Both the position numbers and the translations under genes were made by a program. The notes under the pieces were generated by a model, which worked only from the letters and a program-made list of their open reading frames with translations, ran no database searches and had not been told where the DNA came from. From contig CATZPU010000010.1 in assembly GCA_958422845.1 (NCBI GenBank), forward strand, positions 1 to 14,207: a stretch of 14,207 nt of DNA. Reading direction: 5' to 3'. This stretch comes from an uncultured Lachnospiraceae bacterium (lineage in GTDB: Bacteria; Bacillota; Clostridia; Lachnospirales; Lachnospiraceae). Below are positions 349-11,233 of this stretch, piece after piece; within the stretch, counting starts at the first letter, position 1; each line of letters opens with the position of its first letter.

Positions 349-1842
349 ATGATGAAAGGTTTGAAGAAAACGGCTGTACTGGGATTATGCGCCGGTCTGG
401 TGCTGACATCTCTTGCAGGCTGTTCAAAAAAGGAGACATTTGATAGAGAGGCGGCAGCGATCACGGTAAACGGCCAGACGGTATCGGCGGGCGTTGTGAA
501 TTTTGCACTTAGATACAATCAGGCAAATTATGAATCGCTGTATATGTCGCTCGGACTGACTGATCCGTTTAATCAGGATATGTACGGAGCAGGTACGACG
601 CTTGGCGACGATATGAAGAATGTGCTTTCCGATGAGCTGACGAATGCGATGCTTGCAGAGCAGAAGGCGCAGGAGTACGGCGTAGCGCTGACAGACGAGC
701 AGAAAACTGCGATCGCGGATGCGGCAAAGAGCTTTATCGCTGCAAATGAGGAAGAGGTTTTGGAAAAGCTTGGCATCACAGAGGCAGATGCACAGCGTTA
801 TCTGGAGCTTTCGACGATCCGCACGATGATGGAGACTGAGATGAGTGCGGATGTCGATACAGAGGTATCAGACGAGGAAGCAGCTCAGAGAAAGATACAG
901 TACGTTCTGTTTACTCCGGTCACAGACGAGGAGCTTGCGGCTGAGACGGAGACAGAAGAAGCGCAGAGCGAGACGGCGCAGTCCGAGAGCGAAGAGACAC
1001 AGACTGAGTCCGCTGAAGAGACAGAAACCGAAAGCGAGTCAGAAGCACAGAGCGAGGCTGCGGAATCTGAGACGGCAGCCGAAACAGAAGAAGAGACTGC
1101 ACAGCTTACAGAAAAAGAAGATGTAAAGACGCAGAGCGCCGACGAGACGGAAACAGAAAGCGAATCTGCAAAAGCAGAAGAGGAAACTGAAGCATCGGAA
1201 ACAGAAACTGAGGCAGCAGAGACGGAGACAGAAGATCCGGAAGCAGCCGAGGCGATGGAAAGAGCCCGCGTCCGTGCAGAGGAAATGCTCGCAAAGCTTC
1301 AGGACGGCGCAGAGTTTGAGAAGGCAGCAGAAGAGATGGGCAAGACGGCTTCCACTACAACATTCGGAGCAGACTATTCCATCACAGAGCTGGCAGAAGC
1401 CACAGAAGGACTGACAGACGGTACGCTTGTAGAGACTCCGGTAAAGACAGCGAACGGCTATTACGTAGTCAAGGTGCTTTCCGAGCTCGACCGTGAGGCG
1501 ACAGATGCAAAGAAAGAGTCTATCGTAAAGCAGCGCAGGCAGGAGCAGATCGCTTCCCTGTACACGGAGTGGACAGAGGCAGGAGAGGTAACTGTCGATG
1601 ATAAGGTAATGGCAGGCATCACATTTGATTATCACCTGACGCAGCCGACAGAGGCGCAGACGGAAGCCGTCACAGAGGCAGCAGGTGAGACGGAGAGCGA
1701 AGCCGTCACAGAGGCAGCAAGTGAGACGGAGAGTGAAACCGTTACAGAGGCAGTAAGCGAAACAGAAAGCGAGGCTGCCACAGAGGCGGAAAGCGAGACA
1801 GAAAGCGAGGCTGCCACAGAGGCGGAAAGCGAGACAGAGTAA
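349..1842 (+). CDS. prsA: PrsA-like parvulin peptidyl-prolyl isomerase lipoprotein with acidic insert
   Basis: Predicted extracytoplasmic foldase that assists folding of secreted proteins, anchored to the outer face of the membrane by a lipid. The start is placed at 349 (352 is equally possible) because GGAGG at 339-343 lies 5 or 8 nt upstream; the ATG at 337 overlaps that site. A basic, hydrophobic signal peptide ends in the lipobox LAGC (Cys25). A helical SurA/PrsA-type N-terminal region follows. The parvulin domain begins at KIQYVLFTP (about residue 181), is interrupted by about 100 residues rich in E, S and T (about 198-300), and resumes with RAEEMLAKLQDGAEFEKAA through NGYYVVKVLSELDREA. 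Residues 440-497 are tandem 12-residue repeats of the form (A/T)(A/V)TEAxSETESE. At 497 residues it is much longer than the usual 280-350, and the excess is the insert plus the tail. The fold assignment is good; isomerase activity is inferred. Confidence 0.85.
   Translation: MMKGLKKTAVLGLCAGLVLTSLAGCSKKETFDREAAAITVNGQTVSAGVVNFALRYNQANYESLYMSLGLTDPFNQDMYGAGTTLGDDMKNVLSDELTNAMLAEQKAQEYGVALTDEQKTAIADAAKSFIAANEEEVLEKLGITEADAQRYLELSTIRTMMETEMSADVDTEVSDEEAAQRKIQYVLFTPVTDEELAAETETEEAQSETAQSESEETQTESAEETETESESEAQSEAAESETAAETEEETAQLTEKEDVKTQSADETETESESAKAEEETEASETETEAAETETEDPEAAEAMERARVRAEEMLAKLQDGAEFEKAAEEMGKTASTTTFGADYSITELAEATEGLTDGTLVETPVKTANGYYVVKVLSELDREATDAKKESIVKQRRQEQIASLYTEWTEAGEVTVDDKVMAGITFDYHLTQPTEAQTEAVTEAAGETESEAVTEAASETESETVTEAVSETESEAATEAESETESEAATEAESETE
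940..1248 (+). repeat. Low-complexity E/S/T-coding insert inside the parvulin domain
   Basis: This purine-rich stretch is built from short irregular units of GAG, ACA/ACG, GAA, AGC and GCA codons encoding ETE, ESE, AETE and similar. It falls between the first strand and first helix of the rotamase domain. Its composition keeps most other frames open, which explains the long antisense open frames here. Confidence 0.7.
1666..1839 (+). repeat. 36-bp tandem repeat, 4.8 copies, at the 3' end of the foldase gene
   Basis: Units start at 1666, 1702, 1738, 1774 and 1810 (the last is 30 bp, ending at the stop). Each encodes 12 residues, (A/T)(A/V)TEA(A/V/E)(G/S)ETESE. The last two units are almost identical in DNA, which suggests recent duplication; the first three have diverged. 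Confidence 0.9.
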
Positions 1843-2136: not shown

Positions 2137-3015
2137 TTGAGCAAGGAAAACAGAACTTATAGGGACGGCGTGTTTGTAGATTTATTTTTTCGCTGGCGAG
2201 AAGCAAAGGCAAACGCACTTAGCTTGTACAATGCTTTAAGCGGCAGTCATTACGACAAGCCGGAAGAAGTGCGGATGCTGAAACTGGAAGACGCGGTGTA
2301 TAAAGACTTTGAGAATGACATATCATTTCTGATAGAAGAGAAGATATTTGTGCTCGGCGAGCATCAAAGTACGATAAACGAAAATATGCCGCTGCGTTTT
2401 CTGTTATACATCGGCAGACTTTACGAGACGCTTCTGGAGGTAGAGGATCGGTATAAAGAAAAGAGGATTCCGCTTCCTACGCCTGAATTTTACGTATTTT
2501 ACAATGGGGCAAAAGAATATCCAAGTCATGTGACGCTAAAGCTGTCGGATGCGTTTATCGTAAAAGAGCGCCATGCATTTGATCTGGAAGTAGTCGTTCA
2601 TGTATATAATATCAACAAGGGCATGAATCCTGAATTATTAGAGGGCTGCCCTATATTAAAAGAATACTGTCAGTTTGTTGATATCGTTTCGAAATATAAG
2701 GGACAGAAGGGAAAACTGAAATCTGCCATAGAAGAATGCATGCAGAAAGGAATCTTGACCGATTATTTATCAGAAAGAGGATCGGAGGTAACGAATATGT
2801 TGATCGCTCAGTATGATTATGAAAAGGATATGGAAGTAAAACAGAAGGAGGCAAAAGCAGAAGGAAGAGCCGAGGGCAAGACAGAAGGTGAAACGTATAT
2901 GGCGAAGCTTGTCTCGTTTTTGTGCAGGAAAAAGCGTTACAGCGATCTGGAGAAGATCGAGGATCCCAAGAACAGGGAGAAGCTGTTTGCAGAGATGGAG
3001 GCGGAAGAAAAATAA
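2137..3015 (+). CDS. Rpn-like PD-(D/E)XK nuclease family protein (first copy)
   Basis: Member of the Rpn / PD-(D/E)XK 'nuclease family transposase' group; family members are DNA endonucleases linked to RecA-independent recombination in E. coli. The start is TTG at 2137, set by AGGAGG at 2124-2129 with a 7-nt spacer; no ATG in frame fits better. The active-site signature is visible: Asp61 in NDISF, then the strand LGEHQSTINENMPLR with Glu75 and Gln77 (E-x-Q replacing E-x-K). It is followed by the family blocks PEFYVFYNG (about 117-125) and LEVVVHVYNINKGMNPELL (about 150-168). The C-terminal part has a G/E-rich tract, AEGRAEGKTEGE, typical of the family. Length is 292 residues, normal for the group, with no frameshift. 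It stands alone between its own promoter and terminator. Cellular role unknown. Confidence 0.85.
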   Translation: MSKENRTYRDGVFVDLFFRWREAKANALSLYNALSGSHYDKPEEVRMLKLEDAVYKDFENDISFLIEEKIFVLGEHQSTINENMPLRFLLYIGRLYETLLEVEDRYKEKRIPLPTPEFYVFYNGAKEYPSHVTLKLSDAFIVKERHAFDLEVVVHVYNINKGMNPELLEGCPILKEYCQFVDIVSKYKGQKGKLKSAIEECMQKGILTDYLSERGSEVTNMLIAQYDYEKDMEVKQKEAKAEGRAEGKTEGETYMAKLVSFLCRKKRYSDLEKIEDPKNREKLFAEMEAEEK

Positions 3016-3818: not shown

Positions 3819-3844
3819 GGTAAGGAAAAGATATGGAGGATGGT

Positions 3845-4375
3845 ATGGCGGAGAATATTTTTTTGATAGGTTTTATGGGGGCAGGCAAATCGACCGCAGC
3901 ACGAATGCTGAAGGAGCGCTGCGAAATGCAGCTTTTGGAAATGGATGAGGAGATCGAAGCGCGGGAGAAAATGAAGATCTCCGAGATTTTTGAAAAAAAG
4001 GGCGAAGCATATTTTCGTGCTCTGGAGACGGACCTTTTGCGGGAGCTTGAAGGAAAGCAGGATATTGTCGTCTCCTGCGGCGGCGGCGCGGCGATGCGTG
4101 CATGCAATGTAGAAGCGATGAAAAAGAGCGGAAAGATCATTTATCTGAGCGTGCGTCCTGACACAGTGCTTTCACGCGTAGCAGGCAGTCATACGCGCCC
4201 TCTTCTGGAAGGAAATATGAACGAGGCGTATGTCAGGGCCATGATGCAGGAGCGGCTGCCGAAGTATATTGCGGCTGCTGATATTACAGTGGAAACAGAT
4301 GAAAAAAGTGCGGAGGCGATCTGTGCGGAGATAGTCAGAAAGATGAAAGAACTGTCAGAACTGCGGCAGGTATAG
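3845..4375 (+). CDS. aroK: Shikimate kinase
   Basis: Phosphorylates shikimate at the 3-hydroxyl using ATP, the fifth step of the shikimate pathway to aromatic amino acids. The start at 3845 is preferred to the in-frame ATG at 3833: GGAGG at 3835-3839 serves it, and the numbering then matches the family closely. Walker A is GFMGAGKST (9-17), shikimate-binding Asp34 is in MDEEIE, Arg58 is in AYFRALE, and the Gly triplet is at 79-81 in SCGGGAA. The lid arginine is in TRPLL (Arg118) and the adenine-side arginine is in QERLPKY (Arg137). Length is 176 residues, normal. No other aro gene lies nearby. The next gene starts 43 nt later with no clear terminator, so the two are probably co-transcribed. 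Confidence 0.93.
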   Translation: MAENIFLIGFMGAGKSTAARMLKERCEMQLLEMDEEIEAREKMKISEIFEKKGEAYFRALETDLLRELEGKQDIVVSCGGGAAMRACNVEAMKKSGKIIYLSVRPDTVLSRVAGSHTRPLLEGNMNEAYVRAMMQERLPKYIAAADITVETDEKSAEAICAEIVRKMKELSELRQV

Positions 4376-4393
4376 GAAGTATGGTCTGACAGT
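4351..4393 (+). repeat. 9-bp inverted repeat straddling the aroK stop codon
   Basis: ACTGTCAGA 4351-4359 is perfectly complementary to TCTGACAGT 4385-4393, with a 25-nt loop. No U-run follows. It may affect expression of the downstream gene or be chance. Confidence 0.35.
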
Positions 4394-4418
4394 GTAAAAT
4401 CAGGGGGATAAATAGGGA

Positions 4419-6161
4419 ATGACGGAGGAGAACAGAGGAAAACGCGAACGCTTAAGCGGAAGAGCCCGTGTGTATACAGGGGAGAACTATACACAGCGAA
4501 GCGGACAGAGCGATACAGAATATAACACTCCGAAGCGCAGAAGGCAGGACGATACGGGAAATAACGGTTCGCTGCGCAGAGAGCAGAGTGATACGGAATA
4601 CAGAGCTTCACAGCGCAGGAGACAGGACGATACAGAATATAATACTCCGAAGGGCAGGAGACAGAGCAGTACGGGATATAGCGTTTCGTCTCGCAGAGAG
4701 TACAGAGATTTGGAAGGCGGCGCACTACAGCGCGGACGAAAGGCAGATACGAAGAGAGAAAAGGGATTTCAGGAAAAGCTGCGCAGCCATAGGATCGGCA
4801 GACTGCGGCGCGTACTGTATTGCTTCGGGGGGCTTGCCGCCGCTGCTTATATTGGGGCGGCAGTGTATTTCGGGATGCATTTTTATGAGGGGACGGTTAT
4901 CCTTGGAATGGACTGCAGCCAGATGACGGCAGAAGAGGTCAAGCAGGCTGCGGCGAAGAAGCTGGGGGCGTATGAGCTGACGATTTTGGAAAGAGAAGAT
5001 AAAACAGAAACGATCGGTGCAGGGGAGATCGCTCTTAATTTTGTAGATGACGGAAGCATTGACGAGATGCTTTCGGCTCAGCGGTCTTATTTCTGGCCGG
5101 TCATGATGTTTTTGGCGAAAGGCAGAGCAGATTCTGTGGCATTTTCATATGATCGGGATGCCGCGATCGGACGGATCAATGCACTTGCGTGCATGGACAG
5201 TATTCGTGCCGTTGCTCCGCGGGATGCATATATTGAAGCGGGAGAGTACGGTTTTGAAGTAATAAGAGAAGTTATGGGAACGACGCTGAATAAGGACAAA
5301 ACGAAAGAGCTTCTTTTGGCGTGCCTTGATAAGGGAAAGAACCGCGTTTCTCTCGATGAGGAAGGCTGTTACGTCGATCCGCAGATTTATCACGACAATG
5401 AGGAGCTTGTGCGGGATGCCGCCTCTATGAGCGAGCTTGCAAGTGCGGATATTGCGCTTGATTTCGGTACGGTACAGGAGGTGGTGGACGCTTCCGTGAT
5501 GCGGGACTGGATCGTAGAAATATCTGACGGCGTGTTTGCAATAGACGATACGTGTGTAGAACAGTATGTGGAAGAACTGGCGGCGAAGTACGATACTTTC
5601 GGTCTCCCGTTGGAATTTCAGACGTCTCTTGGAACGACAGAGACGCTCTCAGGAGGCGATTATGGATGGTGTCTCGATCAGGAAGAGACGCTTTTGGCGC
5701 TCAGAACCGCGATGGACGAAGGGTATCGCGGTACTCTGGAGCCGGTGTATCTGTATTCTGCAATGAGCCATGAAAATAACGGGATTGGCTATACGTATGT
5801 GGAGATCTGTCTTTCGCAGCAGCGGATGTGGTGTTATGAAAATGGAAATCTTATCGTAGACACACCGGTCGTTACCGGAAATCCGAACAAAGGAAATGCT
5901 ACGCCGTCAGGCGGCGTGTGGGCGATCGACGCAAAAAAGCGGGATGCGATATTGACGGGAGAAGGGTATACATCTCCTGTGGATTACTGGATGCCGTTTA
6001 ACGGCGATGTGGGAATCCATGATCTGAAGGAGCGGGCATATTTCGGCGGAACGATCTATCTTTCAAACGGTTCACACGGATGCGTCAACACGCCGTATGA
6101 GCAGGTGCAGACGATCTATGATGCAGTATCGATCGGAACTCCGGTCATTGTATATGAATGA
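4419..6161 (+). CDS. Membrane-anchored L,D-transpeptidase with peptidoglycan-binding domain
   Basis: Predicted cell-wall enzyme that makes 3-3 cross-links or attaches partners to peptidoglycan stems. From the N-terminus: a cytoplasmic, strongly basic region of about 125 residues with 13-residue repeats (residues 32-96); one membrane span at about 132-151 (GGLAAAAYIGAAVYFG); a peptidoglycan-binding-4-like domain (FYEGTVILGMDCSQMTAEEV); a long spacer; and a YkuD catalytic domain from about 458. The active site is complete: His534, then SNGSHGC with His553 and nucleophile Cys555, 25 residues before the end. At 580 residues it is usual for the clostridial two-domain form, apart from the repetitive tail. 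The ribosome site is an atypical GGGGG 11 nt upstream. No beta-lactam-type transpeptidase motif is present. Confidence 0.9.
   Translation: MTEENRGKRERLSGRARVYTGENYTQRSGQSDTEYNTPKRRRQDDTGNNGSLRREQSDTEYRASQRRRQDDTEYNTPKGRRQSSTGYSVSSRREYRDLEGGALQRGRKADTKREKGFQEKLRSHRIGRLRRVLYCFGGLAAAAYIGAAVYFGMHFYEGTVILGMDCSQMTAEEVKQAAAKKLGAYELTILEREDKTETIGAGEIALNFVDDGSIDEMLSAQRSYFWPVMMFLAKGRADSVAFSYDRDAAIGRINALACMDSIRAVAPRDAYIEAGEYGFEVIREVMGTTLNKDKTKELLLACLDKGKNRVSLDEEGCYVDPQIYHDNEELVRDAASMSELASADIALDFGTVQEVVDASVMRDWIVEISDGVFAIDDTCVEQYVEELAAKYDTFGLPLEFQTSLGTTETLSGGDYGWCLDQEETLLALRTAMDEGYRGTLEPVYLYSAMSHENNGIGYTYVEICLSQQRMWCYENGNLIVDTPVVTGNPNKGNATPSGGVWAIDAKKRDAILTGEGYTSPVDYWMPFNGDVGIHDLKERAYFGGTIYLSNGSHGCVNTPYEQVQTIYDAVSIGTPVIVYE
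4512..4706 (+). repeat. 39-bp tandem repeat, five copies, in the L,D-transpeptidase gene
   Basis: Five in-frame units begin at 4512, 4551, 4590, 4629 and 4668. Each encodes 13 residues on the pattern DTEYNTPKRRRQD (variants DTGNNGSLRREQS, DTEYRASQRRRQD, DTEYNTPKGRRQS, STGYSVSSRREYR). Units 1 and 4 are most alike. The translation lies on the cytoplasmic side of the membrane span. Confidence 0.85.
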
Positions 6162-6301: not shown

Positions 6302-8434
6302 ATGTATGTAATCAAAAAAGACGGAACGAAGGAAGCATTTAATGTGCAGAAGATCATCGTTGCCGTAAATAAATCAGCAGCCCGCATCTTGTATAAGTTT
6401 ACAGAGGAAGAGCTTCAGTTCCTCTGCGATTTTGCGAAGGAAAAAGCGGAGTCTCTGCATAAAGAGGGCATCACGATTCAGGAGATGCACAACATCGTTG
6501 AGGGAGCGCTGGAGGCTGTGAATCCTGCCGTAGCGAAAAGCTATCGCGATTACCGCAACTACAAGCTTGATTTTATTCATATGATGGACGATGTTTACAC
6601 AAAAAGCCAGTCTATCCGCTATATCGGCGATAAGAGTAATGCAAATACGGACAGCGCTCTCGTTGCGACGAAGAGGAGTCTTATCTTTAATGAGCTGAAT
6701 AAAGAGCTTTACCGTAAGTTTTTTATGACGCGGGACGAGCTGCAGGCGTGCAAGGACGGATATATTTACATTCACGACCAGTCGGCGCGTCTTGATACGA
6801 TGAACTGCTGTCTGTTTGACGTCGGTTCTGTTTTAAAAGACGGATTTGAGATGGGAAACGTCTGGTACAATGAGCCTAAGACGCTCGATACGGCGTTTGA
6901 CGTTATGGGAGATATTATTTTGAGTACGGCTGCGCAGCAGTACGGCGGTTTTACCGTGCCGGAAGTAGATAAGATCCTTGCTCCATACGCAAAGAAAAGT
7001 TTTGAAAAATATCAGGAAGAATTTATGAAATATGCCGATCCGTCATGGGAGGGCGCAGAGGAAAGATCGTATCAGTATGCGCAGGACAAGGTTCGCCGTG
7101 ACTGCGATCAGGGCTGGCAGGGGATTGAGTATAAGCTTAATACCGTAGGTTCTTCACGTGGGGATTATCCGTTTGTGACGGTGACGCTCGGTCTTGGCAC
7201 AGATGATTTTGCAAGGATGATCTCTATATCTCTGCTGGAAGTCCACAAAGGGGGACAGGGAAAAACGGGAAATAAAAAACCGGTTCTTTTCCCGAAGATC
7301 GTGTTCCTTTATGATGAAAACCTGCACTGTCCGGGCGGCGCATGCGAGGATGTGTTTGAGGCAGGCATCGAATGTTCGGCAAAGACTATGTACCCTGACT
7401 GGCTTTCTATGACAGGCGAGGGATATATTTCAAGCATGTATAAAAAATACGGAAAGGTGATCAGCCCGATGGGCTGCCGCGCATTCTTAAGCCCGTGGTA
7501 TGAGAGAGGCGGTATGGAGCCTGCTGACGAGAATGATTCTCCGGTATTTGTCGGCAGATTCAATGTGGGCGCCGTCAGCCTTCATTTGCCGATGATCCTT
7601 GCAAAATCCCGTGCGGAGAGCCGTGATTTCTATGAAGTGCTTGACTATTATCTGGAAATGATCCGCCGTCTGCATATCCGCACGTACGAGTATCTTGGCG
7701 AGATGCGTGCTTCTACGAATCCGCTTGCATACTGCGAGGGCGGATTCTATGGCGGGCATTTAAAACCGAATGACAAGATCAAGCCGCTCTTAAAGCCGAT
7801 GACATCGTCCTTTGGCATTACTGCACTGAACGAGCTGCAGGAGCTTTATAATGGAAAATCAATCGCAGAAGACGGACAGTTCGCACTGGAGGTATTGCAG
7901 TATATCAATGACAGAGTTGCGGAATTCAAAAGAGAGGACGGCTGGCTTTACGCGATCTACGGTACACCGGCAGAGAGCCTCTGCGGACTTCAGGTGGAGC
8001 AGTTCCGCAAAAAATACGGAATTGTTGAGAATGTTTCCGACCGTCCGTACGTAAGCAACAGCTTCCACTGCCACGTAACAGAGGATCTGACACCGATTGA
8101 AAAGCAGGATCTGGAAGGTCGTTTCTGGGAGCTTTGCAACGGCGGAAAGATACAGTACGTACGTTATCCGATCGATTACAATATCGAGGCGATCAAGAGC
8201 CTGATCCGCCGTGCAATGAGCCTTGGATATTATGAAGGAGTAAATCTGTCCCTTGCCTACTGCGATGACTGCGGCCATCAGGAGCTGGAGATGGATGTGT
8301 GTCCGAAATGCGGTTCCCGCAATCTCACAAAGATCGACCGAATGAACGGTTATCTTTCATATAGCCGCGTCCACGGCGATACGCGTCTGAACGCAGCAAA
8401 AATGGCAGAGATCGCAGAACGAAAAAGCATGTGA
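6302..8434 (+). CDS. nrdD: Anaerobic (class III) ribonucleoside-triphosphate reductase
   Basis: Glycyl-radical enzyme that reduces ribonucleoside triphosphates to deoxyribonucleotides without oxygen. An N-terminal ATP-cone (about residues 1-95, beginning YVIKKDGTKEAFNVQKI) indicates allosteric control by ATP/dATP. The conserved active-site block TMNCCLFDVG is at 166-175. The C-terminus has a zinc-binding site of four cysteines (654, 657, 667, 670; CDDC and CPKC) and the radical motif RMNGYLS with Gly683. The 710-residue length is normal and the frame is intact. The start is supported by AAGGAG at 6287-6292, 9 nt upstream. The activase gene nrdG, usually next to nrdD, is not in this window. 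The paired NrdR-like boxes upstream suggest dNTP-responsive repression. Confidence 0.96.
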   Translation: MYVIKKDGTKEAFNVQKIIVAVNKSAARILYKFTEEELQFLCDFAKEKAESLHKEGITIQEMHNIVEGALEAVNPAVAKSYRDYRNYKLDFIHMMDDVYTKSQSIRYIGDKSNANTDSALVATKRSLIFNELNKELYRKFFMTRDELQACKDGYIYIHDQSARLDTMNCCLFDVGSVLKDGFEMGNVWYNEPKTLDTAFDVMGDIILSTAAQQYGGFTVPEVDKILAPYAKKSFEKYQEEFMKYADPSWEGAEERSYQYAQDKVRRDCDQGWQGIEYKLNTVGSSRGDYPFVTVTLGLGTDDFARMISISLLEVHKGGQGKTGNKKPVLFPKIVFLYDENLHCPGGACEDVFEAGIECSAKTMYPDWLSMTGEGYISSMYKKYGKVISPMGCRAFLSPWYERGGMEPADENDSPVFVGRFNVGAVSLHLPMILAKSRAESRDFYEVLDYYLEMIRRLHIRTYEYLGEMRASTNPLAYCEGGFYGGHLKPNDKIKPLLKPMTSSFGITALNELQELYNGKSIAEDGQFALEVLQYINDRVAEFKREDGWLYAIYGTPAESLCGLQVEQFRKKYGIVENVSDRPYVSNSFHCHVTEDLTPIEKQDLEGRFWELCNGGKIQYVRYPIDYNIEAIKSLIRRAMSLGYYEGVNLSLAYCDDCGHQELEMDVCPKCGSRNLTKIDRMNGYLSYSRVHGDTRLNAAKMAEIAERKSM

Positions 8435-8442
8435 TAAAACAG

Positions 8443-8603
8443 TTCAGTACGACAGCAGTGCAAAAAAAGGCGAAACAGGCTTGCCTGTATGAGCCTCTTT
8501 TTGGTACTGCGCAGTCGGGCGGAACGCCCGACAGTCACAGACAAAAGTGCCGTAAGGTACGACTGACGGCGAAGCCGGCAGGTCTGTGACATGTCGTACT
8601 GGA
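8443..8603 (+). ncRNA. Multibranched structured element closed by a long-range helix
   Basis: A perfect 10-bp long-range helix, CAGTACGACA 8445-8454 with TGTCGTACTG 8592-8601 (12 bp counting outer T-G and T-A pairs), encloses several hairpins. These are the terminator-like hairpin 8462-8502; GTCGGGCG 8514-8521 with CGCCCGAC 8525-8532; and a 9-bp helix GTCACAGAC 8534-8542 with GTCTGTGAC 8582-8590. The last carries two arms: GTGCC/GGTAC 8547-8560 with a GTAA tetraloop, and CTG-CGGC/GCCG-CAG 8563-8581. Almost every base can be paired. I recognise no Rfam family. It could be a structured RNA, a leader of the peptidase gene, or a MITE-like repeat whose ends are the closing helix. Confidence 0.5.
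8462..8502 (+). terminator. Terminator-like hairpin after nrdD
   Basis: A-tract, AGGC 8468-8471 with GCCT 8493-8496, an inner helix ACAGG 8475-8479 with CCTGT 8484-8488, then TTTTT at 8498-8502. A-tract and T-tract can pair and the hairpin would work on either strand. It begins 27 nt after the nrdD stop. Confidence 0.65.
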
Positions 8604-8629
8604 AGACTGGCGAAAACTACGTTTTACAG

Positions 8630-8720
8630 GAATGGGCTAAACGCCCATTCAGCCGCAGGGAGCTGCAAAGCAGCGAGAAGCCCCACAGGGGCGCTCTGCG
8701 GTCTGCATGGCAAAGCAGAG
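8630..8720 (+). ncRNA. Second run of hairpins upstream of the M42 peptidase
   Basis: GAATGGGC 8630-8637 pairs with GCCCATTC 8643-8650. A three-way junction is closed by CGCAGGG 8654-8660 with CTCTGCG 8694-8700 (one G-U) and holds GCTGC/GCAGC 8662-8674 and GCCCC/GGGGC 8680-8692. TCTGC 8702-8706 pairs with GCAGA 8715-8719. GCAGAG 8715-8720 can instead pair with CTCTGC 8694-8699 and break the junction, giving two exclusive states 28-50 nt before the peptidase start. No sigma-70-like promoter was found in 8503-8747. Confidence 0.45.
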
Positions 8721-8747
8721 ATTGTAAGATCGGGGAGGAAAACAGAT

Positions 8748-9776
8748 ATGAACTATATTGATTATATAATGGATATGACGCAGAAACTTCTGGCAATACA
8801 CAGTCCGTCAGGATTCACGCATAACGCGGCGCGTTTTCTTTGCGAGGAGCTTACAAAACTTGGATACGTGCCAAAACTAACGAATAAGGGCGCAGTGCTT
8901 GTGGATCTCGGCGGGGAAGATACTGAGGATGCAGTCCTTCTGGCTGCCCATATCGATACGCTTGGAGCCATGGTTACTCAGATTAAAGAAAACGGCAGGC
9001 TGAAGCTTACGAATATCGGAGGGCTGAATCCGAATAACACGGAGGCTGAGAACTGTCACGTTTATACGAGAGACGGAGAAGTTTATGATGCGACATTTCA
9101 GCTTACGGACGCGTCGGTGCATGTGAATGGAAAATACAGTGAGGAGAAGCGCACGTATGACAGCATGGAGGCGCTTCTTGACGAACTTGTTTCTTCAAGA
9201 GAGGATGTGGAGAAGCTTGGTATCATGACGGGAGATTTTGTCTGCTTCGAGCCGCGTACGGTCGTAACAAAGAGCGGCTATATAAAGAGCCGTTTTCTCG
9301 ACGATAAATTCAGCTCCTGCATTATTCTCGGATATGCAAAGTATTTAAAAGAACAGGGGATTACTCCAAAACGCCGTGTATACGCAATGTTTACCACATA
9401 TGAAGAAGTGGGACATGGGGGAGCGGCTGCCATACCGGAAGGTGTGACAGAGATGATCTCTGTCGATATGGGATGCGTCGGGGAAGGACTTTCCTGTGAT
9501 GAGACAATGGTATCGATCTGCGCGAAGGACAGCACAGGACCGTATGATTACGACGTTGTTTCAGGGCTTGTACAGGCTGCAAAGGAAAACGGAGTTTCCT
9601 ATGCGGTTGACGTATATCCGTATTACGGATCAGATGCAGATGTTGCACTGCGAGCAGGATATGATATTCGTCATGGTCTGATCGGGCCGGGCGTGTACGC
9701 TTCACATGGATATGAACGTTCCCACAGGAAGGGAGCAGAAAATACGTTTGAATTGCTGAAAGCATATTTGGGCTGA
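8748..9776 (+). CDS. M42 family metallo-aminopeptidase
   Basis: Predicted cytoplasmic, tetrahedral, two-metal aminopeptidase that trims peptides. The start is at 8748, set by GGGGAGG about 8 nt upstream; the frame stays open to 8586 but that part falls in the hairpin element and encodes nothing recognisable. Metal ligands and catalytic residues follow the family order: His68 in AAHIDTLG, bridging Asp185 in FLDDK, Glu219 (catalytic) and Glu220 in YEEVGHGG, Asp240 in SVDMG, and His320 in YASHGYERSH. An N-terminal block PSGFTHNAARF and an SGY-containing middle domain are also typical. Length is 342 residues, normal. The gene ends just before a strong terminator and appears to be transcribed alone or with nrdD. 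Confidence 0.92.
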   Translation: MNYIDYIMDMTQKLLAIHSPSGFTHNAARFLCEELTKLGYVPKLTNKGAVLVDLGGEDTEDAVLLAAHIDTLGAMVTQIKENGRLKLTNIGGLNPNNTEAENCHVYTRDGEVYDATFQLTDASVHVNGKYSEEKRTYDSMEALLDELVSSREDVEKLGIMTGDFVCFEPRTVVTKSGYIKSRFLDDKFSSCIILGYAKYLKEQGITPKRRVYAMFTTYEEVGHGGAAAIPEGVTEMISVDMGCVGEGLSCDETMVSICAKDSTGPYDYDVVSGLVQAAKENGVSYAVDVYPYYGSDADVALRAGYDIRHGLIGPGVYASHGYERSHRKGAENTFELLKAYLG

Positions 9777-10229: not shown

Positions 10230-11174
10230 ATGAATAATGAACTCTCAAACAGTATTTCCCGGCAAGGTTTGGAAGCGCGATGTGACGCTCAGTGTAAGAA
10301 AGTACTTAGTCAGAAGATCATTCTTGCGTGGATTTTGAAGTATACGACGGATGAATTTTCGGCTCTTTCGATTGAAGAAGTTATGGATTGTATCGAGGAA
10401 GAGCCGGAGGTGGGCAGTGTTCCGGTAACTTTTTCAGGCAGAGAGGAGATTGACGGATTGCCCAATGAGAGCAGCATTCCTGCGGAGGGTGTGATCTATT
10501 ACGATATCCGTTTTGCTGCATATGTTCCTCTTCGCGGGGAAAAGATCAGAGTAATCATAAATGTAGAGGCACAGAAGGATTTTTATCCGGGTTATCAGAT
10601 TGTGACGAGAGGGATATTTTACGATGCGAGGATGCTGTCCGCCCAGCTTGGCAGGGAATTTACTCCGACGAATTACGATGAGTTGAAAAAGGTGTTTTCT
10701 ATCTGGATCTGTATGGAAGCGCCTGCTTATATCGGCAATGCGATTTCTGTGTATCAGATGAGGAAGAAAGATCTTGTAGTGGGGATTCCGGATCTGCCTC
10801 AGGCGTACGATAAGCTGTCAGTCGTGATTGTGGCGCTGAATGATAAAAAAACTACGGCAGATGAATTTCTTGCAATGATGAACGTATTGTTTTCGGTTGA
10901 GAAGCAGGCGGAAGAAAAAAGAAGGATACTTGAACAGCAGTTTCATATACCGATGCAGACTGAATTAGGGAAGGAGATAGGGCTTATGTGCAATTACAGT
11001 GATTATGTAGAGGCAAAGGGAATTGAAAAGGGTGTGCGTCAAGGTGAGGCGCAAAGCAGGATGGAAATCGCGCAGAAGCTTCTAAAGATGGGAATGAAGC
11101 TGGAAGGGATCGCGGAGGCGACATCTCTGCCGATGGAGGTGATTAAAGGGATCGCGCTTCCGGAAAAAATATAA
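10230..11174 (+). CDS. Rpn-like PD-(D/E)XK nuclease family protein (second, divergent copy)
   Basis: Another member of the PD-(D/E)XK 'nuclease family transposase' group abundant in Lachnospiraceae, from a different subfamily than the gene at 2137. The start is supported by AAAGGAG at 10217-10223, 6 nt upstream. The core is visible: GVIYYDIRFAAYVP with Asp92, then VIINVEAQKDFYPGYQIVTRG with Glu113 and Gln115 as E-x-Q, followed by IFYDARMLSAQL. A C-terminal helical region contains the G-spaced tract AKGIEKGVRQGEAQ and ends with a short repeat-like helix pair (IAEATSLPMEVIKGI) common in the family. Length is 314 residues and the frame is intact. It sits alone between two strong terminators. Nuclease activity and role are inferred. 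Confidence 0.83.
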   Translation: MNNELSNSISRQGLEARCDAQCKKVLSQKIILAWILKYTTDEFSALSIEEVMDCIEEEPEVGSVPVTFSGREEIDGLPNESSIPAEGVIYYDIRFAAYVPLRGEKIRVIINVEAQKDFYPGYQIVTRGIFYDARMLSAQLGREFTPTNYDELKKVFSIWICMEAPAYIGNAISVYQMRKKDLVVGIPDLPQAYDKLSVVIVALNDKKTTADEFLAMMNVLFSVEKQAEEKRRILEQQFHIPMQTELGKEIGLMCNYSDYVEAKGIEKGVRQGEAQSRMEIAQKLLKMGMKLEGIAEATSLPMEVIKGIALPEKI

Positions 11175-11186
11175 TACAGTTGCATA

Positions 11187-11233
11187 ATGTCCCTAAAAGA
11201 AGCGATAGAGTGCCTTCTTTTAGGGACATTTTT
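11187..11233 (+). terminator. Terminator of the second Rpn-like gene
   Basis: A perfect 16-bp stem (11187-11202 with 11214-11229; a 17th A-T pair outside), 11-nt loop, then T5. It begins 12 nt after the stop. The stem is oriented for the plus strand only; no T-run follows on the minus strand, so the convergent repressor gene has no obvious terminator of its own. Confidence 0.92.

What the first reader, a model, noticed from the sequence alone, without database searches (positions are those of the whole stretch)
8443..8720. Dense nested-hairpin element between nrdD and an M42 peptidase gene
Nearly every base of about 280 nt can be placed in helices. A perfect 10-bp long-range helix (8445-8454/8592-8601) closes a multibranch domain that contains a terminator-like hairpin, an 8-bp and a 9-bp perfect stem and two further arms, one with a GTAA tetraloop. 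A second domain (8630-8720) has a three-way junction that can be broken by an alternative pairing of 8694-8699 with 8715-8720 just before the peptidase start. No promoter was seen in 8503-8747, so the element may be carried in mRNA reading through from nrdD. Two explanations compete: an undescribed structured RNA or regulatory leader, or a mobile palindromic repeat (MITE-like) with 10-12-bp terminal inverted repeats.
Basis: seen in the sequence. Interest (0 to 1): 0.7.

Follow-up and report, generated by a model that had tools for sequence, protein, structure and literature searches.

The report
Hairpin-rich transposon relic behind nrdD
The folded stretch between two ordinary genes looks like an old copy, plus half of another, of a small jumping DNA element that occurs in up to dozens of copies per genome in related bacteria and whose folded shape has been kept through matching mutations.

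Summary
It is best explained as a MITE-like (non-autonomous transposon) insertion, not an nrdD or M42 leader. Window 8436-8610 is one full copy (model match 8440-8606, 117.9 bits); 8630-8711 resembles the right half of a second copy. Young copies are about 176 bp, start GTAAC, end GTTAC and carry 8-bp target duplications (16 of 17 with >=6/8 identical, 8 exact). One site is exactly empty in a close relative. Complete IS66-family elements in the same bacterial family have similar ends and 8-bp duplications, so an ISBst12-type IS66 transposase is the probable mover (inferred). Unusually, the four-arm interior shows strong pair covariation (52 of 53 pairs, in a model-fitted alignment), although 54-94-bp derivatives with little interior have similar flanks. 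No Rfam match to the element. What preserves the fold is open.

The parts
8436..8610 (+). Complete, old copy of the repeat (model R1 matches 8440-8606; degenerate GTAAC/GTTAC ends inferred on either side; no target duplication recognised)
   Evidence: 117.9 bits, E 6.4e-34, model 1-169 of 169, the only match in the window; the window copy was one of the 24 sequences the model was built from.
8445..8454 (+). 5' strand of the closing (terminal inverted repeat) helix, pairs with 8592-8601
   Evidence: the helix covaries in relatives (columns 8-17 with 166-174).
8592..8601 (+). 3' strand of the closing helix
8455..8510 (+). Arm 1: long hairpin, terminator-like on the + strand (8477-8496, then CTTTTTGGTA)
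   Evidence: 3 terminator-like sites in 8300-8800, shuffles 0.8, sd 1.0; homologous arm in the 24 rows of A1.
8514..8532 (+). Arm 2: hairpin with the core GGGCGGAACGCCC (8517-8529), nearly invariant in the aligned genus copies
8534..8590 (+). Arm 3: three-way junction with inner hairpins 8547-8560 and 8563-8581
8630..8711 (+). Resembles the right half (arm 2, arm 3, 3' closing strand CTGCATGGC) of a second copy of the GCCATGC subtype; not matched by R1 itself
   Evidence: 83.7% over 43 nt (8669-8711) with L001; 88% over 8630-8675 with G024; alignment; one search gave no R1 match here.
6302..8434 (+). nrdD (anaerobic ribonucleotide reductase); its stop codon (8432-8434) lies directly before the element
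   Evidence: Pfam NRDD 5.9e-116.
8748..9776 (+). M42 peptidase gene downstream of the element
   Evidence: Pfam Peptidase_M42 5e-74.

Best explanation
The feature is a decayed insertion of a 176-bp-class MITE (miniature inverted-repeat transposable element) next to what looks like a right-half remnant of another copy. Shown, in relatives: copies are scattered, young ones end GTAACAGTTCAG.../...CTGAATAGTTAC, are flanked by 8-bp target duplications, and sites are polymorphic between species. Inferred: an IS66-family (ISBst12-type, single-ORF) transposase acting in trans recognises the roughly 15-19-nt ends and moves the element into mostly T-rich 8-bp targets; the cargo is not coding but a four-arm palindromic fold. 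Inferred and less sure: the fold makes insertions tolerable or acts as a weak insulator/terminator near genes, and is kept by selection or by palindrome-templated repair. In the window the copy sits directly behind the nrdD stop codon and would be read as part of any nrdD transcript that continues downstream.
For: Dispersed copies: 42 of 47 genus genomes at E<=1e-3, up to 49 matches in one genome (G024) with 60 candidates scored per genome; end motif with <=2 mismatches in 21 of 47 genomes, most in G016 (63+59 on the two strands) and G020 (65+56), where one copy can count twice; backward-pattern control 1 match in all. Target duplications: 17 copies with both ends readable, 16 with >=6 of 8 identical and 8 exact; with shuffled partners means 3.6 and 0.48, maxima 8 and 4 in 2000 shuffles. 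Empty site: L181 query 1-496 and 673-1169 adjoin in G016 with an 8-bp overlap, 98% and 99% identical. Presence/absence at the L177 site: filled in G020 and G016, element absent in six inspected relatives (L257, L258, L259, L263, L267, L269), separate inverted copy in G022. Mover: L407, IS66 transposase (481 aa; DUF6444 + DDE_Tnp_IS66; NF033517 264.2 bits, cut-off 180) between GTAACTATTCAGAACCACCC and GTAACTATTCAGCACCCCG with duplication ATAATTTT 8/8; the MITE right end in L181 is GTAACTATTCAGAACAGCA, the first 15 nt being the same. Transposase ORFs of L408/L409 are followed by GTAACAGTTCAGCCATGC, the left end of GCCATGC-subtype copies such as L188. L436, in the same genus: 2267 bp, ends GTTACTATTCAC, duplication ACTATTTT 8/8, DDE_Tnp_IS66 2e-10. 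ISDge4 (IS66, ISBst12 group) is reported with ends GTGACTACTCAGCA/GTAACTGCTCAGCA and an 8-bp repeat (PMC12898284, passages).
Against: The window's own genome is not held, so its copy number is unknown, and no target duplication is recognisable at the window copy. The genomes richest in the MITE mostly lack an IS66 transposase in the assembly: PF03050 at E<=1e-20 in 13 of 47 genomes, none in G011, G015, G016, G020-G024; with NF033517 only fragments in G015, G020, G024; a relative of the L402 protein at E<=1e-5 in 5 of 47. The assemblies are in many contigs, so absence is weak evidence. None of the autonomous elements I examined has the whole 19-nt end of the L181 type; the longest shared stretch is 15 nt there and 18 nt for the GCCATGC subtype, whose transposases are cut by contig edges. 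Classical IS66 elements of the genus share only GTAA and 8-bp duplications with the MITE. Covariation of the interior is more than a passive MITE needs.
Confidence: 0.87

Rival explanations
1. The interior is a selected structured RNA (cargo or domesticated non-coding RNA) that rides on a MITE: transcribed in sense, it acts in cis on mRNA ends (termination, stability) or in trans.
For: 52 of 53 pairs with changes on both sides, 91.8% of cells paired against 64.6% shuffled, in A7 (27 sequences, 23 of them from other genera); 20 BLAST-picked copies of two genomes: 49 compensated double changes, 1 broken double, 10 wobble, 12 broken single, 3 chronically mismatched pairs set aside. G-U outnumber A-C cells 41:18 in A7 (binomial p 0.004) and 41:10 in A3, as expected for RNA of the sense strand. 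Arm 1 of the window is terminator-like.
Against: A3 and A7 are picked with or fitted to the model, which favours both results; G-U:A-C is 20:16 in A1 (BLAST-found loci, then filtered by motif) and 10:4 in A4 (BLAST-picked), together p 0.20. No orientation preference: flanking genes (+,+)13, (-,-)11, (+,-)8, (-,+)6 of 38. Derivatives of 54-94 bp with little interior have 7-8 of 8 matching flanks, so the interior seems not to be needed for movement. The simple scan found no terminator in L177. No transcript data.
Confidence: 0.2
2. The fold is kept without selection: palindrome-templated (quasipalindrome) repair copies one arm onto the other, so that covariation is a by-product of mutation in a palindrome-rich MITE.
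For: Compensated changes prevail even among similar copies; the strand bias is not significant in the sets not picked by the model. The mechanism is recalled from general knowledge, not tested here.
Against: Some internal mismatches persist over many copies (pairs 219/271, 140/214 and 18/276 of A3), and unpaired columns are as conserved as paired ones in A7 (mean identity 0.617 and 0.602, columns with at least 20 letters), which simple arm-to-arm copying does not explain.
Confidence: 0.3
3. A cis-regulatory leader of the M42 peptidase gene or a 3' element specific to nrdD.
For: The element lies between these genes in the window and, in reduced form, in L001 (R1 29.7 bits at 5855-5967).
Against: Only 1 of 50 M42 loci has an R1 match upstream of the gene; copies elsewhere lie beside other genes; in the ten other M42 loci tested no nrdD match was found.
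Confidence: 0.02

Closest known systems
IS66 family, ISBst12 group (ISDge4; PMC12898284, passages seen)
   Same: GTAACTnnTCAG-like ends, 8-bp direct repeats, one large ORF with an IS66 transposase domain in the elements found here (L407, L436, L390, L397).
   Different: The element here has no gene and is about 176 bp; I did not see its interior in these ISs, but did not compare it systematically. That the Lachnospiraceae ISs belong to the ISBst12 group is inferred from ends and single ORF, without a tree.
Pneumococcal BOX, RUP and SPRITE repeats (PMC3049150, passages seen)
   Same: Small repeats; BOX and RUP with terminal inverted repeats and target duplications; stable predicted folds; modular size variation (BOX); insertion into one another; SPRITE close to 3' ends of genes.
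   Different: Sequences were not compared; here the added module (about 51 nt) can sit in three different arms, and host and ends differ.
bcr1 repeats of Bacillus cereus (search listing only; properties recalled)
   Same: Dispersed mobile-like repeat with a fold (recalled).
   Different: Not compared here.
MITEAba12 (PMC6382973, passages seen)
   Same: Non-autonomous element tied to an IS by its ends and duplication length.
   Different: Mostly 113 bp, 9-bp duplications, attributed to ISAba12.

Membership tests
MITE | Short, non-coding, terminal inverted repeats | tested here: met
   176 bp between GTAACAGTTCAGAACAGCA and (reverse complement) GTAACTATTCAGAACAGCA in L181; the window copy keeps the closing helix but its outermost bases have decayed.
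MITE | Target site duplication | tested here: met
   8 bp in related copies, 16 of 17 with >=6/8; not recognisable at the window copy itself.
MITE | Many dispersed, mainly intergenic copies, polymorphic between relatives | tested here: met
   Of 38 parsed copies 29 are clear of open frames of 150 aa or more, 8 overlap one at one end, 1 (L166) is spanned by a 159-aa frame. Not testable in the window's own genome.
MITE mobilised by IS66 family, ISBst12 group | Ends and duplication length shared with an autonomous element | tested here: met
   L407 (15 nt and 8 bp) and L408/L409 (18 nt, one end only); ISDge4 ends from PMC12898284.
MITE mobilised by IS66 family, ISBst12 group | Transposase present with the MITE in the same genome | tested here: inconclusive
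   L402 relatives in G010, G015 (fragment), G018, G033, G044, 5 of 47; not found in most high-copy assemblies.
MITE mobilised by IS66 family, ISBst12 group | Transposition in trans demonstrated | not testable with these tools
   Needs an experiment.
Known Rfam family | Score at or above a gathering threshold | tested here: not met
   Window 0 matches; 10 and 16 related loci: only a T-box, two tRNAs and an rRNA outside the element. At E<=10 window 8400-8760 gave four matches, all far below gathering scores (best sucC 19.7 bits, threshold 50).
Cis-regulatory leader of M42 or nrdD | Conserved association with one gene family | tested here: not met
   1 of 50 M42 loci.
Structured RNA | Covariation of base pairs | tested here: met
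   A3 and A7 lean towards the model.
Structured RNA | Transcription and function as RNA | not testable with these tools
   No expression data available.

The most novel reading that the evidence does not exclude
A Lachnospiraceae-wide family of IS66-type MITEs carries a conserved four-arm structured RNA as its cargo, selected in its own right: the fold is maintained by compensatory mutation across genera, grows by insertion of a roughly 51-nt hairpin module into arms 1, 2 and 3, and serves the element or host at transcript ends.
Probability: 0.2. Interest if true: 0.75.

Novelty: new member of a known kind. Interest (0 to 1): 0.45.

Why it matters
It explains a class of hairpin-rich intergenic DNA in Lachnospiraceae, links it to a little-studied transposase group, and gives a large natural data set (dozens of copies in some genomes, several genera) for asking why a parasite-like element keeps an RNA-like covarying fold. 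It also warns that covariation alone does not make an intergenic structure a regulatory RNA.

Tried and rejected
Rejected: known Rfam RNA; leader of M42; tRNA/tmRNA; classical IS66 as the direct source of the ends, since they share only GTAA and 8 bp. Led nowhere: plasmid collection (no match); exact end motif in viral contigs; arm-2 core in viral contigs, 12 stretches, best R1 score 18.8 bits; transposase L385 in viral contigs (no relative). Paper searches: 0 papers; 0; 3, unrelated by title; 854 papers hold at least one of two short terms; one listed, none relevant by title; 85, 10 listed; 258, 12 listed; I found no description of this family there, in an open-access library only.

Results against or weakening my reading: the stop-codon adjacency looked striking in the first sample (60 of the 137 matches; 24 of 36 copies with a sense upstream ORF lie 0-8 nt behind it, several at the same gene in different genomes) but was 4 of 21 in the sample from three genomes, so I do not build on it. 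One search used 38 of 53 fetched loci; the rest were not parsed by my motif search. A1 used 24 of the 26 copies listed (two shorter ones, L069 and L075, left out). A7 was given 24 of the 29 family loci L122-L150 (left out L122, L137, L143, L146, L149) plus L181, L192 and the window. wrongly included two reverse-strand rows; one search replaces it. In one search the right end was chosen by a score that included the flank match, which favours matches; 71-, 276-, 327- and 328-bp forms matched at only 3-5 of 8.

Full report
What was checked. There is no Rfam family, no tRNA and no promoter-like site in 8300-8800.

Not a leader. The M42 protein was used to find 50 related loci in species genomes. 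Of the 11 loci tested only L001 (Parablautia sp. Marseille-Q6255, M42 90% identical; Parablautia is a genus of Lachnospiraceae) has nrdD next to M42, with a shorter intergenic stretch whose right part is 84% identical over 43 nt. The covariance model R1 found a match upstream of M42 in 1 of the 50 loci, L001 (29.7 bits); a second weak match (L008, 28.7 bits) begins at the end of that gene.

A dispersed repeat. BLAST with window 8435-8750 gave matches at E<=0.01 in 21 of 47 genomes of the genus of L001's genome, 15 of them in G024. Reading the loci showed one architecture: a closing helix made of the two ends, arm 1 (long hairpin), arm 2 (GGGCGGAACGCCC core) and arm 3 (three-way junction). The window's 8440-8606 is a complete unit; 8630-8711 resembles the right half of another subtype. 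Family matches below about 60 bits should be read with care, since reverse strands of true copies score up to 46.7 bits; most of the 28 printed family sequences show the same arms by eye.

A transposon. Copies were fetched from G023, G020 and G024 (53 loci; 38 parsed). In young ones the unit runs from GTAACAGTTCAG to CTGAATAGTTAC and is flanked by 8-bp, mostly T-rich repeats: of 17 copies with both ends readable 16 match at 6 or more of 8 and 8 exactly, against means of 3.6 and 0.48 for shuffled partners. The decisive case is L181: in G016 the flanks adjoin with exactly the 8-bp overlap, so that 176 bp are absent. The L177 site is filled in two genomes, lacks the element in six inspected ones and holds an inverted copy in a ninth. 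Of the 38 parsed copies 29 are clear of open frames of 150 aa or more, 8 overlap one at one end and 1 is spanned by a 159-aa frame. Elements with the same ends but other sizes exist: single examples of 54, 59, 64, 68, 81, 94, 122 and 227 bp match at 7-8 of 8 flank bases, other forms (64, 59, 71, 276, 327, 328 bp) at 3-5 of 8. The ends alone therefore seem to suffice for movement.

The likely mover. GTAA ends with 8-bp duplications suggested IS66 (recalled). Classical IS66 elements of the genus share no more than that. ISDge4 of the ISBst12 group is reported with GTGACTACTCAGCA/GTAACTGCTCAGCA ends and an 8-bp repeat (PMC12898284, passages). Transposase remnants with GTTACT[AG]TTCAC ends were found in G015 and G033, and family searches gave complete elements: L390 and L397, and L399 with a stop in its frame (duplications 8/8 in all three), and above all L407, whose right end GTAACTATTCAGAAC equals the first 15 nt of the MITE's right end, with duplication ATAATTTT 8/8; an ISL3-type transposase (two ORFs) is nested inside it. 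L408/L409 carry the end of the GCCATGC subtype behind a transposase cut by the contig edge. In the MITE's own genus L436 is complete (2267 bp, ACTATTTT 8/8), but only 5 of 47 genomes hold a relative of the L402 protein at E<=1e-5, and the richest ones mostly do not. That such a transposase moves the MITE is inferred.

The unusual part. The interior covaries strongly: A3 (66 distinct rows, model-picked) 95.1% of cells paired against 87.0% shuffled, 294 double-changed cells against 83.8; A7 (27 sequences: 23 from other genera, L125 from G001, L181, L192 and the window) 52 of 53 pairs with double changes, 91.8% against 64.6%, score 0.590 against 0.156 shuffled and at most 0.094 when slid. Both alignments lean towards the model. 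In 20 copies picked by BLAST from two genomes 49 double changes keep a pair, 1 breaks it, 10 single changes are wobble and 12 break. A sense-RNA signature (G-U over A-C) is seen in the model-picked sets (41:18 in A7, 41:10 in A3) but not significantly in the others (20:16 and 10:4, together p 0.20). Flanking genes show no orientation preference. Hence selection on RNA, selection on DNA hairpins and palindrome-templated repair all remain possible.

Verdict. An old copy, and apparently half of another, of a new family of MITEs with IS66/ISBst12-type ends; ordinary in kind, unusual in the depth of its conserved fold.

Noticed in passing
L224, L233, L253, L327, L236; L201-L203, L080, L088: A roughly 51-nt hairpin module (GGCGCTGA...CCAGTGG...CGTTTAGCGCCGACCGAAGCGGAGCGTAGA) is inserted once to three times in arms 1, 2 and 3 of larger copies while the outer pairings are kept; its origin is unknown.
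   Followed up: partly
L062, L064, L077, L079, L086 beside the full copy; L073 by eye: Several copies are followed by a partial duplicate of their arm 1 or end, a recurrent arrangement of unknown cause; the window's full copy plus half copy may be similar.
   Followed up: no
L144, about 1501-1675 (-): A diverged relative lies between a 23S rRNA match and two tRNA genes.
   Followed up: no
L407, about 3822-5598: An ISL3-type insertion sequence (two ORFs with DDE_Tnp_ISL3) is nested inside the IS66-type element.
   Followed up: partly
window 11186-11230: Perfect 17-bp inverted repeat (AATGTCCCTAAAAGAAG, 11-nt spacer) just behind the ORF 10230-11174.
   Followed up: no
window 1651-1830 and 4492-4725: Repeats of 36-nt and 39-nt period inside an ORF without Pfam match at E<=1e-5 and inside an L,D-transpeptidase gene.
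   Followed up: no
window 2137-3015: Transposase_31 (YhgA-like) protein, E 5.1e-06.
   Followed up: no
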